A stretch of 35,577 nucleotides of DNA from an uncultured Blautia sp. (GTDB taxonomy: Bacteria > Bacillota > Clostridia > Lachnospirales > Lachnospiraceae): the NCBI GenBank assembly GCA_934378195.1, contig CAKRPO010000021.1, forward strand, positions 1 through 35,577. Direction: 5' to 3'. The notes under the pieces were generated by a model. That model did no database searches and was not told the origin of the DNA. It worked only from the letters and a program-made list of their open reading frames with translations. Position 1 is the first letter of the stretch. Each line of letters begins with the position of its first letter. Made by a program: the position numbers and the translations under genes. Positions 16,390-24,980 of this stretch are shown one piece after another.

Positions 16390-17406
16390 TCAGTCTTCGT
16401 ATCCGTTTGGATTCTTCTGCTGGAAATTCCAGGAATCTGCACACATATCTTTGATATCGTACTCTGCTTCCCATCCAAGTTCTTTCTTCGCTTTGGTTGC
16501 ATCAGAATAGCAGGATGCAACATCACCTGCACGACGAGGTTTGATAGAATATGGGATCTTCACACCTGTTGCAGCTTCAAAATTCTTCACAATATCAAGA
16601 ACGCTGTAGCCTTTGCCTGTACCAAGGTTGTAAATGCTGAGGCCGGCGTTGTCTTCCAGTTTCTTGACAGCTTTGACATGTCCTTTTGCAAGGTCCACTA
16701 CGTGGATATAATCTCTGACACCTGTTCCGTCCGGTGTATCGTAGTCATTTCCGAATACGCCGAGCTCTTTAAGCTTACCAACTGCTACCTGAGTGATGTA
16801 TGGCATCAGGTTATTCGGAATACCATTCGGATTCTCGCCGATAAGACCGCTCTTATGAGCTCCGATCGGGTTGAAGTAACGAAGAAGCACTACATTCCAT
16901 TCCGGATCTGCTTTCTGGATATCGGTAAGAATCTGCTCCAGCATGGATTTGGTCCATCCATAAGGATTGGTGCACTGTCCTTTCGGGCACTCTTCTGTGA
17001 TCGGGATGATTGCCGGATCTCCATATACTGTTGCAGAAGAGGAGAAAATAATATTTTTGACACCATGTTTTCTCATCACATCTACAAGAGTAAGTGTACC
17101 TGCAATATTATTCTCATAATATTCCCACGGTTTCACTACAGACTCACCTACTGCCTTCAGTCCGGCAAAATGGATACAGGAATCAATGTCCTCCTTTTCA
17201 AAAACTTCGTTCAGACCTTCACGGTCAAGAATGTCAGTTTTGTAAAATTTGACTGGTTTGCCTGTGATCTTCTCTACTCGTTCGAGGCTCTTTTCACTGG
17301 AATTGCTTAAGTTATCCAGAACAACTACATCATATCCTGCGGTCTGCAGTTCTACTACTGTATGACTTCCGATAAAACCTGCTCCGCCTGTTACTAAAAT
17401 TGCCAT
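16390..17406 (-). CDS. galE: UDP-glucose 4-epimerase (GalE)
   Basis: GalE interconverts UDP-galactose and UDP-glucose, and in many bacteria also UDP-GalNAc and UDP-GlcNAc. The 338-residue short-chain dehydrogenase has the NAD loop GGAGFIG (7-13), the FSSSATVYG strand with the catalytic serine, and the YGWTK catalytic pair Tyr149 and Lys153. YFNPIGAH, GVRDYIHVVDLA and NLGTGKGYSV follow. Start ATG 17406 has AGGAGG upstream. It is divergent from a sugar ABC operon and lies beside a NahK/nucleotidyltransferase pair, so a UDP-HexNAc epimerase role is plausible. The residue that gates N-acetylated substrates in other GalE enzymes cannot be assigned safely by eye. Confidence 0.95.
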   Translation of the reverse strand: MAILVTGGAGFIGSHTVVELQTAGYDVVVLDNLSNSSEKSLERVEKITGKPVKFYKTDILDREGLNEVFEKEDIDSCIHFAGLKAVGESVVKPWEYYENNIAGTLTLVDVMRKHGVKNIIFSSSATVYGDPAIIPITEECPKGQCTNPYGWTKSMLEQILTDIQKADPEWNVVLLRYFNPIGAHKSGLIGENPNGIPNNLMPYITQVAVGKLKELGVFGNDYDTPDGTGVRDYIHVVDLAKGHVKAVKKLEDNAGLSIYNLGTGKGYSVLDIVKNFEAATGVKIPYSIKPRRAGDVASCYSDATKAKKELGWEAEYDIKDMCADSWNFQQKNPNGYED

Positions 17407-17451
17407 GATTCTCTCCTCCTGACATTTACTCTGGTTCTGTTTTCGCTTGTC

Positions 17452-17480
17452 ATTGTAGCACTATTCTTTTTTTTTCACAA
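17452..17480 (-). promoter_or_regulatory. Promoter of galE
   Basis: On the minus strand there is TTGTGA (17475-17480), a 17-base spacer containing an A-tract, and TACAAT (17452-17457), about 46 bases before the start codon. A pair of direct repeats lies just upstream. Confidence 0.7.
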
Positions 17481-17496
17481 TATATTCCCGGATTAT

Positions 17497-17533
17497 CCCT
17501 CAGATTTTACTAAAATGCCCTCAGATTTTACTA
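17497..17533 (-). repeat. 16-bp direct repeat upstream of the galE promoter
   Basis: CCCTCAGATTTTACTA occurs at 17497-17512 and again, identical, at 17518-17533. The units start 21 bases apart, which is two helical turns. The proximal copy is 16 bases from the galE -35 box, a location typical of an activator site. Confidence 0.85.
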
Positions 17534-17737
17534 TTCCCAGAGTATTCTCAAAAATTTTGTTTGTCTTACTTTTTTCATATTATTGTTTTATTTATCCTGT
17601 TTTTTTGATGTTATAGCTTTAATTGTCCCGTATATCTGAGATTATGTTTTTTTATGTTTGTGCAATCTGTCATAACTATTTTTTATGCAAAATATATCAT
17701 TTTTTTTGTAATTTCGGACTTGTTTTATACATTTTTA

Positions 17738-17766
17738 TTGACACTATTCGTCATAAACGATATAAT
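17738..17766 (+). promoter_or_regulatory. Consensus sigma-A promoter of the sugar ABC operon
   Basis: TTGACA (17738-17743), a 17-base spacer and TATAAT (17761-17766) match the sigma-A consensus exactly. Such a promoter is strong without help, so control is likely by repression. A TCGT-CATAA-ACGA inverted repeat lies within the spacer. Confidence 0.9.
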
Positions 17767-17778
17767 CAACCTAAATTC

Positions 17779-17795
17779 TTCGTGATGGCCACGAA
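17779..17795 (+). promoter_or_regulatory. Inverted repeat in ABC operon leader
   Basis: TTCGTG-ATGGC-CACGAA has perfect six-base arms just downstream of the transcription start expected near 17773. This suits a repressor operator, or an RNA hairpin. Confidence 0.6.
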
Positions 17796-23080: not shown

Positions 23081-23194
23081 TAAAGAATTTGGTTCCACCA
23101 TATTCAAAACTGTAACCATTATTAAATAATACCTTTTTTTCGTTTTTAGTATTTGCACAAAAAGATTATATTTTTACACATTTCAAATAATGAT

Positions 23195-23223
23195 TTGACT
23201 ATTTATCACAAATTTATTAGTAT
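23195..23223 (+). promoter_or_regulatory. Promoter of the araC-type regulator gene
   Basis: TTGACT (23195-23200), a 17-base spacer and TAGTAT (23218-23223) lie about 57 bases upstream of the GTG start, divergent from the nucleotidyltransferase promoter. Confidence 0.7.
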
Positions 23224-23279
23224 GAGAAATAGAAACAATATCACAAATGACGAATATCACCTATTAAGGAGGTTGTCAC

Positions 23280-24185
23280 GTGGCTTATCAGAGTGTTCCT
23301 CTGGATGAGGAACTTTTTATAAAAGATCTTTACACCATTCATTACTACGAATACCGGAATGATTTTCATTTTGACGGGGAACGTCATGATTTCTGGGAAT
23401 TCCAATGTGTAGACAAAGGTGCTGCCGAAGTTGTCACAGACAATGGCTCACATACGCTCACACGCAGTCAGGTAATCTTTCATCGCCCAAACGAGTTTCA
23501 TACATTAAAAGCAACCGGCAAGACCGCACCAAATATCATCGTGATCTCTTTTGCCTGTGATTCTCCCTGCATGAAATTTTTTGAAAATAAAGTGCTGGAA
23601 TTTTCCGATACGGAGCGAAGTATTCTTGGACGTATCATAGCCGAAGCGAGAAACTGTTTTGCTTCTCCCCTGGATAATCCTTATCTGGAAAAAATGATCA
23701 AAAAAAATGAGATTCCCTTTGGTTCCCAGAGGCTTCTGACCTTATATCTGGAAGAACTTCTGATTCATATGATCCGTAGATATACCATTGCTCATTATTC
23801 TGCTTCTGCCGGTATCTACGACTCCTGCCAGACAAGCTCTGAAACCTGCAGGAGTATCATCCACTATCTTGGCGATCATTTACGGCAGTCTCTGACGATT
23901 GAAGACATCTCCAAGGATAATATGATCGGGCGCTCTCAGCTTCAGAAGCTTTTCCGTGAGGAATACCAGTGTGGAGTCATTGAATTCTTTTCCCGTATGA
24001 AGGTTGATTTTGCCAAACAGATGATCCGGGAAAATGATATGAATTTTACCCAGATTTCAGATTTCCTGGGCTACTCTTCGATTCATTATTTTTCCAGACA
24101 GTTCAAAAAGCTGTCCGGCATGACACCGACTGAATATGCTACATCCATCAAGGCGTTATCCGAGAGACCTCAGCGCCAGTTCTAA
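23280..24185 (+). CDS. AraC-family transcriptional regulator
   Basis: This 301-residue regulator has an N-terminal cupin-type sensor domain (about 20-100; FHFDGERHDFWEFQCVDKG then IFHRPNEFHTL). The C-terminal DNA-binding domain (about 195-290) has two helix-turn-helix motifs. The second contains FTQISDFLGYSSIHYFSRQFKKLSGMTPTEY, the AraC signature. The start is GTG with AAGGAGG seven bases upstream. It lies between the nucleotidyltransferase-nahK operon (divergent) and nagB (same strand), so it is the obvious candidate regulator of amino-sugar uptake and use. Its ligand is unknown. Sites in this region could be the palindromes listed here or the direct repeat near galE. Confidence 0.93.
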   Translation: MAYQSVPLDEELFIKDLYTIHYYEYRNDFHFDGERHDFWEFQCVDKGAAEVVTDNGSHTLTRSQVIFHRPNEFHTLKATGKTAPNIIVISFACDSPCMKFFENKVLEFSDTERSILGRIIAEARNCFASPLDNPYLEKMIKKNEIPFGSQRLLTLYLEELLIHMIRRYTIAHYSASAGIYDSCQTSSETCRSIIHYLGDHLRQSLTIEDISKDNMIGRSQLQKLFREEYQCGVIEFFSRMKVDFAKQMIRENDMNFTQISDFLGYSSIHYFSRQFKKLSGMTPTEYATSIKALSERPQRQF

Positions 24186-24217
24186 CAGAAAGTAATTAAA
24201 CCATATATAAACGTGTA

Positions 24218-24235
24218 TGTCCAAAGAATTGGACA
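24218..24235 (+). promoter_or_regulatory. Inverted repeat upstream of nagB
   Basis: TGTCCAA-AGAA-TTGGACA has perfect seven-base arms and ends just before the AAGGAGG of nagB. It may be an operator or a hairpin that shields the ribosome binding site; no good promoter was seen between the regulator gene and nagB. Confidence 0.6.
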
Positions 24236-24248
24236 AGAAGGAGGAAAC

Positions 24249-24980
24249 ATGCAGATCTGCAAAGTAAAAAACTATCAGGAACTCAGCCGGAAAGCAGCCA
24301 ATCTGATTGCGGCACAGATAATCCTGAAACCGGACAGCATTCTTGGCCTTGCTACAGGCTCATCTCCTGTTGGCACTTATGAGCATCTGGTAGAAATGTA
24401 CGAAAACGGTGACCTGGACTTTTCCAGAGTAACAACCGTCAATCTCGATGAATATAAAGGACTGGCAGGTTCTGATGACCAGAGCTACCGCTACTTTATG
24501 AACACACATCTGTTCCACAAGATCAATATCAATCACGCTAACACTTATGTTCCGGACGGCACCGAACCAGACGCCGCCAAAGCCTGTGAAGCATACAATG
24601 CATTGCTTCACAAAGTCGGCCCGGCTGATATCCAGATTCTTGGACTTGGCCATGACGGACATATCGGCTTTAATGAACCATCTGACCATTTCGAAAATGA
24701 AACACACTGTGTGGATCTGACAGAGACTACGATTCGGGCAAATAAACGTTTCTTCGCCAACGAAAAGGATGTCCCAAAACAGGCATATACTATGGGGATT
24801 GGCACGATCATGCGCTGTAAGAAGATTCTTGTAATCGTAAGTGGTAAAGATAAAGCTGATATCCTGAAACAGGTTGTTCAGGGACCTGTTACCCCGGAAG
24901 TACCAGGATCTATCCTTCAGTTCCATCCGGATTGCACGATCATCGCTGATGAAGATGCCCTTTCTGCAATGGATATCTGA
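24249..24980 (+). CDS. nagB: Glucosamine-6-phosphate deaminase (NagB)
   Basis: NagB converts glucosamine-6-phosphate to fructose-6-phosphate and ammonia, joining amino-sugar breakdown to glycolysis. The 243-residue protein has GLATGSSPVG (33-42). NLDEY carries the catalytic Asp67, and LGHDGHIGFNEP (133-144) carries Asp136, His138 and Glu143, spaced as in the E. coli enzyme. I chose the ATG at 24249 with AAGGAGG upstream; the frame opens at 24213, but that would include the inverted repeat. It is probably co-transcribed with the AraC gene, 63 bases away. No nagA deacetylase is in the window. The short length matches the Gram-positive form without the C-terminal extension of the allosteric E. 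coli enzyme. Confidence 0.94.
   Translation: MQICKVKNYQELSRKAANLIAAQIILKPDSILGLATGSSPVGTYEHLVEMYENGDLDFSRVTTVNLDEYKGLAGSDDQSYRYFMNTHLFHKININHANTYVPDGTEPDAAKACEAYNALLHKVGPADIQILGLGHDGHIGFNEPSDHFENETHCVDLTETTIRANKRFFANEKDVPKQAYTMGIGTIMRCKKILVIVSGKDKADILKQVVQGPVTPEVPGSILQFHPDCTIIADEDALSAMDI

What the first reader, a model, noticed from the sequence alone, without database searches (positions are those of the whole stretch)
16390..24980. Candidate amino-sugar salvage locus: NahK-type kinase fused in expression to a pyrophosphorylase-type nucleotidyltransferase, with galE, importer, AraC and nagB
Within 8.6 kb lie an importer, a NahK homologue translated with no gap after a sugar-1-phosphate nucleotidyltransferase, GalE, an AraC regulator and NagB. 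Bifidobacteria process lacto-N-biose and galacto-N-biose with a GH112 phosphorylase, NahK, a GalT-type uridylyltransferase and GalE. Here the GalT step appears to be replaced by a direct NTP-dependent enzyme, and no phosphorylase is seen. That would send HexNAc-1-phosphate straight to UDP-HexNAc, a route from scavenged mucin or milk sugars to cell-wall precursors.
Basis: partly seen in the sequence, partly recalled or inferred. Interest (0 to 1): 0.7.

Follow-up and report, generated by a model that had tools for sequence, protein, structure and literature searches.

The report
Amino-sugar kinase–nucleotidyltransferase salvage operon
A gut Blautia carries an operon whose two enzymes probably turn amino sugars from host mucus or milk into activated UDP-sugars; in some relatives the two enzymes are naturally joined into one protein, which makes this an unusual and directly testable variant of a known milk-sugar pathway.

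Summary
The window is a Blautia chromosome. The kinase is a close NahK homologue. The transferase belongs to a family with a solved structure (3pnn, Porphyromonas gingivalis) but, as far as I found, no assigned function. The two abut (TAA|GTG).

The partnership is more than local. In a class-wide sample, nahK occurs in 26 of 41 transferase-bearing genomes against 8 of 39 without it, and lies directly behind the transferase in 21 of those 26. A protein search found natural transferase–kinase fusions (all 120 listed of 1,931 hits). AraC, nagB, galE, importers and GH112 recur beside the pair.

The window's importer lies here in only 2 of 80 relatives, nagB in 7.

Best reading: GalNAc/GlcNAc → HexNAc-1-P → UDP-HexNAc, with a group-2-type GalE, for catabolism and/or surface glycans. 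The transferase's substrate is inferred, not shown. The main rival, a general UDP-hexose pyrophosphorylase, is weakened by a second family member in 25 of 26 genomes. Verdict: real, partly as proposed.

The parts
16390..17406 (-). galE, UDP-hexose 4-epimerase of group-2 type (pocket residues Lys84, Asn199, Cys299)
   Evidence: residue roles from PMC6668579 passages
17847..19085 (+). ABC importer solute-binding protein (ORF listed from 17811; ATG at 17847 follows a GGAGG)
   Evidence: PF01547 132 bits; sequence; relative (59%) beside a transferase-kinase fusion in L220
19192..20079 (+). ABC importer permease 1
   Evidence: PF00528; relative 71% in L220
20079..20924 (+). ABC importer permease 2
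   Evidence: PF00528; relative 70% in L220
20938..20973. perfect 16-base inverted repeat between convergent importer and kinase genes; likely bidirectional terminator (not listed by the consensus scan)
20984..22087 (-). NahK-type N-acetylhexosamine 1-kinase, GTG start abutting the transferase stop
   Evidence: 4wh1 308 bits; motif HNDTKLNN/IDLD
22088..23017 (-). sugar-1-phosphate nucleotidyltransferase of the 3pnn family (ORF listed to 23041; likely ATG at 23017)
23280..24185 (+). AraC-family regulator, divergent from the transferase-kinase operon
   Evidence: PF12833 and PF02311; AraC within 1.4 kb of 10 of 21 pair loci against 0 of 27 other transferase loci from the class sample, and 14 of 32 against 6 of 48 named loci
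24249..24980 (+). nagB, glucosamine-6-phosphate deaminase (ORF listed from 24213; ATG at 24249 follows GGAGG)
   Evidence: TIGR00502 273 bits over cut-off; solved deaminase 2bkv 229 bits

Best explanation
The locus is an AraC-linked amino-sugar salvage module of a gut Blautia. N-acetylhexosamines, free or released inside the cell from host glycans (for example by the GH112 phosphorylase coded elsewhere in the two nearest genomes), are phosphorylated at C1 by the NahK-type kinase. The partner transferase, one in-frame stop codon upstream, then joins HexNAc-1-P to UMP from UTP, giving UDP-GalNAc or UDP-GlcNAc. GalE interconverts these. UDP-GlcNAc can go to cell-surface glycans. Or the transferase, running in reverse with pyrophosphate, returns GlcNAc-1-P, which a mutase, NagA and the local NagB would lead to fructose-6-P. 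Shown here: gene identities, conserved pairing, natural fusion, and the company the pair keeps. Inferred: the transferase's substrates (UTP and HexNAc-1-P), the direction of flux, the importer's cargo and AraC control. The transferase may also take Gal-1-P/Glc-1-P, since it stays with galE in genomes without nahK.
For: Kinase: NahK 308 bits, the next kinase chain only at E 0.76; HNDTKxxN-type motif in 54 of 54 kinases at the loci. Pairing: of 118 class genomes 41 hold the transferase. In the 80 profiled (all 41 with it, 39 of 77 without), nahK is in 26 of 41 against 8 of 39 (Fisher p 1e-4, not corrected for kinship), and lies directly behind it in 21 of the 26. Fusion: the joined query returned 1,931 proteins at E<=1e-30; the 120 listed are all 662-679 aa, PF00483+PF01636, 63-67% identical over 98-99% of the query. 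Of 299 family genomes 5 hold both domains in one frame without a stop (G255, G161, G393, G211, and G148, which lacks its start). Company: in 48 transferase loci from the class sample, AraC 10/21 pair against 0/27 others, nagB 5/21 against 1/27, galE 11/21 against 5/27. Importer 59-71% identical to the window's directly before a fusion (L220), and SBP-permease-permease-GH112-transferase-kinase-galE (L221). Another importer upstream on the same strand in 10 of 15 named loci listed, GH112 within 6 kb in 4 of 32 named pair loci, GH95-type genes in L003, L004, L012. GalE pocket triad as in B. longum GalE. A second family member, beside prfA (and mostly glmM) in Blautia-type genomes, can cover the general role.
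Confidence: 0.6

Rival explanations
1. The transferase is a general UDP-glucose/UDP-galactose pyrophosphorylase that displaced GalU; with GalE it serves galactose or UDP-glucose supply, and its pairing with NahK is secondary.
For: None of 26 named relatives has GalU over the curated cut-off and only one a PF01704 match, which contains a stop. GalU is rarer in genomes with the transferase (14/41 against 26/39, p 0.007). Transferase-galE pairs persist without nahK.
Against: 25 of the 26 genomes have a second family member, 57-100% identical to P0246; in Blautia-type genomes it lies behind prfA (17 stretches), with glmM labelled next in 14, and without nahK. The one genome without it (G015) is the one with the PF01704 match. 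This makes the second copy the better candidate for the general role, though in the other genera it lies in other, unidentified contexts and may be another group. GalT is present in 26/26. Fusion with NahK and the AraC/nagB company of pair loci are not explained.
Confidence: 0.2
2. The whole set is simply the bifidobacterial LNB/GNB pathway: the importer takes up lacto-N-biose/galacto-N-biose, the unlinked GH112 cleaves it, and the pair handles the released HexNAc; the pair has no role without GH112.
For: GH112 in 20/26 named genomes; one complete importer-GH112-transferase-kinase-galE operon (L221); GH112 within 6 kb in 4 of 32 named pair loci, and in the held DNA of 8 of 32 against 1 of 48 other named loci.
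Against: In the class sample only 3 of 26 genomes with transferase and nahK hold GH112, so the pair is mostly found without it. G007 and G023 have nahK but no GH112. The window's binding protein has only distant solved relatives (best 76 bits), so its cargo is open.
Confidence: 0.3
3. An AmgK/MurU-like cell-wall recycling pair (MurNAc/GlcNAc 1-kinase plus uridylyltransferase).
For: Pfam families PF01636 and PF00483, which AmgK and MurU also have, and the same reaction logic (AmgK/MurU recalled, from no call).
Against: By sequence the kinase's clear solved matches are NahK and the transferase's is 3pnn. Company is galE, nagB, importer and, in relatives, glycan hydrolases. No muramic-acid gene was recognised among the window proteins scanned.
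Confidence: 0.05
4. Chance neighbours without joint function.
For: The exact window arrangement with importer and nagB is kept in only 2 of 80 named loci.
Against: Pairing across the class, fusion proteins, and recurrence of importer and nagB beside the pair in other arrangements.
Confidence: 0.03

Closest known systems
Bifidobacterial lnpABCD (LNB/GNB) gene cluster
   Same: ABC importer, NahK, GalE of the same group, and in relative L221 also GH112, in one operon (cluster content from PMC8106489 and PMC6668579 passages)
   Different: A 3pnn-family nucleotidyltransferase stands where GalT stands; GH112 is not in the window; most class-sample genomes with the pair lack GH112
Bacteroides thetaiotaomicron BT4240 GalNAc kinase locus
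   Same: NahK-like PF01636 kinase in a host-glycan context, needed for growth on GalNAc (PMC11992087 passages)
   Different: The main text holds none of the terms nucleotidyltransferase, pyrophosphorylase, UDP-GalNAc, epimerase or uridyl; our pair would supply the step after GalNAc-1-P
Two-enzyme laboratory synthesis of UDP-HexNAc with NahK plus GlmU or AGX1
   Same: Same two reactions in sequence (PMC6264712 passages)
   Different: Here another transferase family would do step two, and nature has joined the two domains in one chain
L-fucokinase/GDP-fucose pyrophosphorylase (FKP)
   Same: A bifunctional sugar kinase and nucleotide-sugar pyrophosphorylase (recalled, from no call)
   Different: Other kinase and transferase families and another sugar (recalled)
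AmgK/MurU
   Same: APH-fold anomeric kinase plus PF00483 uridylyltransferase (recalled)
   Different: Not among the sequence matches listed; different company

Membership tests
N-acetylhexosamine 1-kinase (NahK) | Clear full-length homology to characterised NahK | tested here: met
   4wh1/4ocj, 308 bits over residues 12-363 of 367
N-acetylhexosamine 1-kinase (NahK) | Catalytic HNDTK..N and IDLD motifs (role recalled) | tested here: met
   Present in window; 54 of 54 kinases at the loci keep an HNDTKxxN-type motif
N-acetylhexosamine 1-kinase (NahK) | Phosphorylates GlcNAc/GalNAc at C1 | not testable with these tools
   Needs assay
lnp (LNB/GNB) gene cluster | Importer, NahK and GalE together | tested here: met
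lnp (LNB/GNB) gene cluster | GH112 phosphorylase in the cluster | tested here: not met
   None among the window proteins scanned with Pfam; elsewhere in both nearest genomes
lnp (LNB/GNB) gene cluster | GalT-type uridylyltransferase in the cluster | tested here: not met
   Transferase is PF00483; GalT lies elsewhere in relatives
GalU UTP-glucose-1-phosphate uridylyltransferase | TIGR01099 above curated cut-off | tested here: not met
   TIGR01099 is not among the four models matched by the window transferase at E<=0.001; best GalU chain 2ux8 E 0.004
GlmU | Bifunctional model above cut-off, acetyltransferase domain | tested here: not met
   Archaeal-type GlmU TIGR03992 32 bits against 292; GlmU NF010933 22 against 505; 317 aa, only PF00483
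UDPGP/AGX family (PF01704) | PF01704 match | tested here: not met
   Only PF00483 found at E<=0.001
3pnn family | Sequence and fold match to 3pnn | tested here: met
AmgK/MurU | Nearest relatives are AmgK and MurU | tested here: inconclusive
   Neither is named among the matches at E<=1, but whether they are in the library was not checked
Group 2 GalE | Lys/Asn/Cys pocket as in B. longum GalE | tested here: met
   K84, N199, C299; triad in 70 of 70 galE genes compared at the loci; rule from PMC6668579 passages
Group 2 GalE | Acts on both UDP-Gal and UDP-GalNAc | not testable with these tools
   Needs assay
NagB | TIGR00502 over cut-off | tested here: met
   273 against 236.9 bits

The most novel reading that the evidence does not exclude
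Gut Clostridia use a dedicated pair, in some species one bifunctional protein, that takes free N-acetylhexosamine straight to UDP-HexNAc. The 3pnn-family enzyme is a new class of UDP-HexNAc pyrophosphorylase. With GalE and NagB it forms a reversible, GalT-free, GH112-independent route for GalNAc, filling the unnamed step after GalNAc-1-P.
Probability: 0.5. Interest if true: 0.65.

Novelty: new variant of a known kind. Interest (0 to 1): 0.5.

Why it matters
GalNAc is the root sugar of mucin O-glycans, yet what follows GalNAc-1-phosphate in gut bacteria is often not named. In a recent B. theta study the kinase is essential for growth on GalNAc, but the passages and term counts seen give no next step (PMC11992087). 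This locus proposes the next enzyme, in a transferase family with a solved structure and no function that I found assigned. The natural kinase-transferase fusion ties the two reactions together and could give a one-protein catalyst for UDP-GlcNAc/UDP-GalNAc, which chemists assemble from NahK plus GlmU or AGX1 (PMC6264712 passages). It may also show how Lachnospiraceae link host-sugar uptake to cell-surface glycans.

Tried and rejected
Readthrough of the single in-frame stop between transferase and kinase: rejected as special. The kinase is in the transferase's frame in 16 of 54 pairs, out of frame in 17 and 21, as chance gives.

Shared operator for importer and transferase/AraC promoters: TATTCGTCAT occurs in both, but at chance level (4 matches with up to one mismatch, 3.2 expected) and inside a promoter spacer not kept in L001. 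TTTGTGCAA: 2 matches against 0.56 expected, 11 of 100 shuffles as many; in L001 one of two hits lies in nagB; in L002 at chance. Nothing claimed. A perfect palindrome TTCGTG-5-CACGAA at 17779-17795 was not followed.

GalE pocket residues as a discriminator: identical at loci with and without nahK, so useless for that.

GH109 (alpha-N-acetylgalactosaminidase) beside the fusion in L216: the neighbour is a GFO/IDH-type oxidoreductase; solved matches are only weak inositol dehydrogenases. Not claimed.

GalU displacement by the window's own transferase: kept as a rival, lowered by the second family member.

Rfam: no match at gathering score in the window; no tRNA. The window's genome is not held, so genome-wide statements are for relatives.

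Literature: searches (open-licence PMC only) listed no paper that by title or abstract start describes this transferase or the fusion; one search listed the GalE, review and BT4240 papers. Six papers were seen as passages; all others only as listings, so a mention inside one of them is not excluded.
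Full report
What is there. The stretch 16390-24980 holds eight genes: galE on the minus strand; a three-gene ABC sugar importer on the plus strand; a nucleotidyltransferase and a NahK-type kinase on the minus strand with stop and start codons abutting (TAA|GTG); and araC and nagB on the plus strand, divergent from the transferase. A perfect 16-base inverted repeat (20938-20973) sits between the ends of importer and kinase. 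The window's genome is not held. By the transferase it is a Blautia: the nearest named loci are Blautia sp. MSJ-19 and Blautia sp. Marseille-P3087, both 93%.

Kinase. It matches solved Bifidobacterium NahK at 308 bits; the next kinase chain is at E 0.76. The motifs HNDTKLNN and IDLD are present.

Local neighbours in 80 named relatives, chosen by the transferase itself: galE in 56, nahK in 34, AraC in 30, nagB in 7, the window's importer in 2. So the window's exact set is shared only with its two nearest relatives. Of 15 loci that I listed gene by gene, 10 have another importer (25-33% to the window's) upstream on the transferase's strand: L003, L004, L005, L006, L008, L009, L011, L012, L022, L036. 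Of these, L003-L006, L008, L009 and L012 continue with kinase and galE. GH95-type genes lie in L003, L004 and L012; GH112 near L011, L036, L041 and L052. A protein distantly related to GH101/GH129 lies near L061, sulfatases near L022 and L041.

Distant relatives. Of 118 genomes of the class, 41 hold the transferase at E<=1e-25. For all 41 and 39 of the 77 without it I profiled other genes: nahK 26/41 against 8/39 (p 1e-4); GalT 31/41 against 13/39 (p 3e-4); GalU 14/41 against 26/39 (p 0.007); GH112 6/41 against 2/39 (not significant). These p values ignore kinship, and the GalT figure shows that co-occurrence alone may reflect a shared sugar-eating lifestyle; adjacency and fusion are the stronger evidence. 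In 21 of the 26 genomes with both, nahK is directly behind the transferase, same strand, within 200 bases. Only 3 of the 26 have GH112. Among 48 transferase loci from this sample (two of them, L192 and L193, are contigs already among the named loci), the 21 with nahK directly behind have AraC within 1.4 kb in 10, nagB in 5 and galE in 11; the 27 others 0, 1 and 5. In the named loci AraC is within 1.4 kb in 14 of 32 pair loci and 6 of 48 others; galE does not differ much there (23 of 32, 31 of 48). On a quick tree of 78 transferases with many weak forks the paired state changes at least 16 times, so the pair has been made or broken repeatedly.

Fusion. A search with the two window proteins joined end to end found 1,931 proteins at E<=1e-30. 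The 120 listed are all of 662-679 aa with PF00483 and PF01636 over 98-99% of the query. In 299 genomes of the window's family, 33 match one such protein at E<=1e-180; 5 have both domains in one open frame without a stop (one lacks its start), 11 more, Blautia sp. MSJ-19 included, match over both domains with a single stop inside. In L220 a fusion follows an importer close to the window's (59, 71, 70%). In L217 and L219 galE follows the fusion. In L221 the order is binding protein, two permeases, GH112, transferase, kinase, galE: the bifidobacterial lnp cluster with GalT exchanged.

In 26 named relatives GalT is present in all, GH112 in 20, nahK complete in 19, in pieces in 1 and absent in 6. 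So in the nearest relatives neither GalT nor GH112 is lost; they lie elsewhere. In L104 (Blautia massiliensis) two permeases, a GH42 gene, nahK and GH112 form their own cluster, far from transferase-galE.

The general-enzyme rival. None of 26 has GalU over cut-off and one has a PF01704 match, with a stop in it, so some other enzyme must make UDP-glucose if these cells make it. A second family member, 57% or more identical to P0246, is in 25 of 26; the one without it is the one with the PF01704 match. Of 27 stretches read around such genes, 17 (Blautia-type) have prfA just before it and 14 of these glmM labelled just after; in L228 and L234 my script listed a longer overlapping frame there, in L242 glmM was not seen. 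The other 10, from other genera or extra copies, lie in contexts I did not identify. None is beside a nahK, nagB or GH112 relative; one has a 29% galE-like neighbour (L246). I take the second copy as the better candidate for the general role. This rests on one exception and on context, not on assay.

GalE. Its three pocket residues equal those of B. longum GalE, which takes UDP-Gal and UDP-GalNAc alike. The triad is the same in 70 of 70 galE genes compared, so it is permissive, not diagnostic.

Mechanism. Most likely: HexNAc to HexNAc-1-P (kinase), to UDP-HexNAc (transferase), epimerised by GalE, then used for surface glycans or returned via GlcNAc-1-P, mutase, NagA and NagB to glycolysis. Shown: gene identity, pairing, fusion, company. 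Inferred: UTP and HexNAc-1-P as substrates, flux direction, cargo, regulation.

Known context. In bifidobacteria the cluster holds GH112, NahK, GalT and GalE (PMC8106489, PMC6668579, passages). Roseburia use LNB and GNB with GH112; the paper's text has no uridylyl, nucleotidyl or UDP terms (PMC7335108, passages). BT4240 is a GalNAc kinase needed for growth on GalNAc, with no nucleotidyltransferase, UDP-GalNAc or epimerase named (PMC11992087, passages). Against easy LNB use: the Blautia coccoides group fell on LNB in faecal cultures (PMC7366668, passages).

Verdict. A new variant of a known kind, of moderate interest, with a bold and cheap test.

Noticed in passing
L146:5550-6467 (P0246) and L227-L242: A second 3pnn-family transferase sits behind prfA, mostly before glmM, in Blautia-type genomes that lack canonical GalU; possible housekeeping UDP-glucose pyrophosphorylase of these bacteria.
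   Followed up: partly
named genomes G001-G026: None of 26 named relatives' genomes has GalU over the TIGR01099 cut-off, so their UDP-glucose source is probably not an ordinary GalU.
   Followed up: partly
L104:8463-11826: In Blautia massiliensis nahK lies directly upstream of GH112 behind two permeases and a GH42 gene, split from the transferase-galE locus.
   Followed up: no
L218:458-10100: A transferase-kinase fusion lies near permeases, a class II aldolase, a sulfatase and a SIS-domain protein weakly like GlmD, resembling an amino-sugar or sulfated-glycan locus.
   Followed up: no
window 17779-17795: Perfect palindrome TTCGTG-5-CACGAA just downstream of a consensus promoter before the binding protein gene; kept in L001 with a changed loop, not in L002.
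   Followed up: no
window 151-16293 and 25016-34718: Flanks are ordinary chromosome genes: ispD, tsaD/tsaB-like/tsaE, penicillin-binding protein, ROK kinase, hprK, uvrC, ftsH, DUF1846, PhoR/PhoB-like pair, Na/Pi cotransporter, greA-like, aminotransferase class V, LysR.
   Followed up: no
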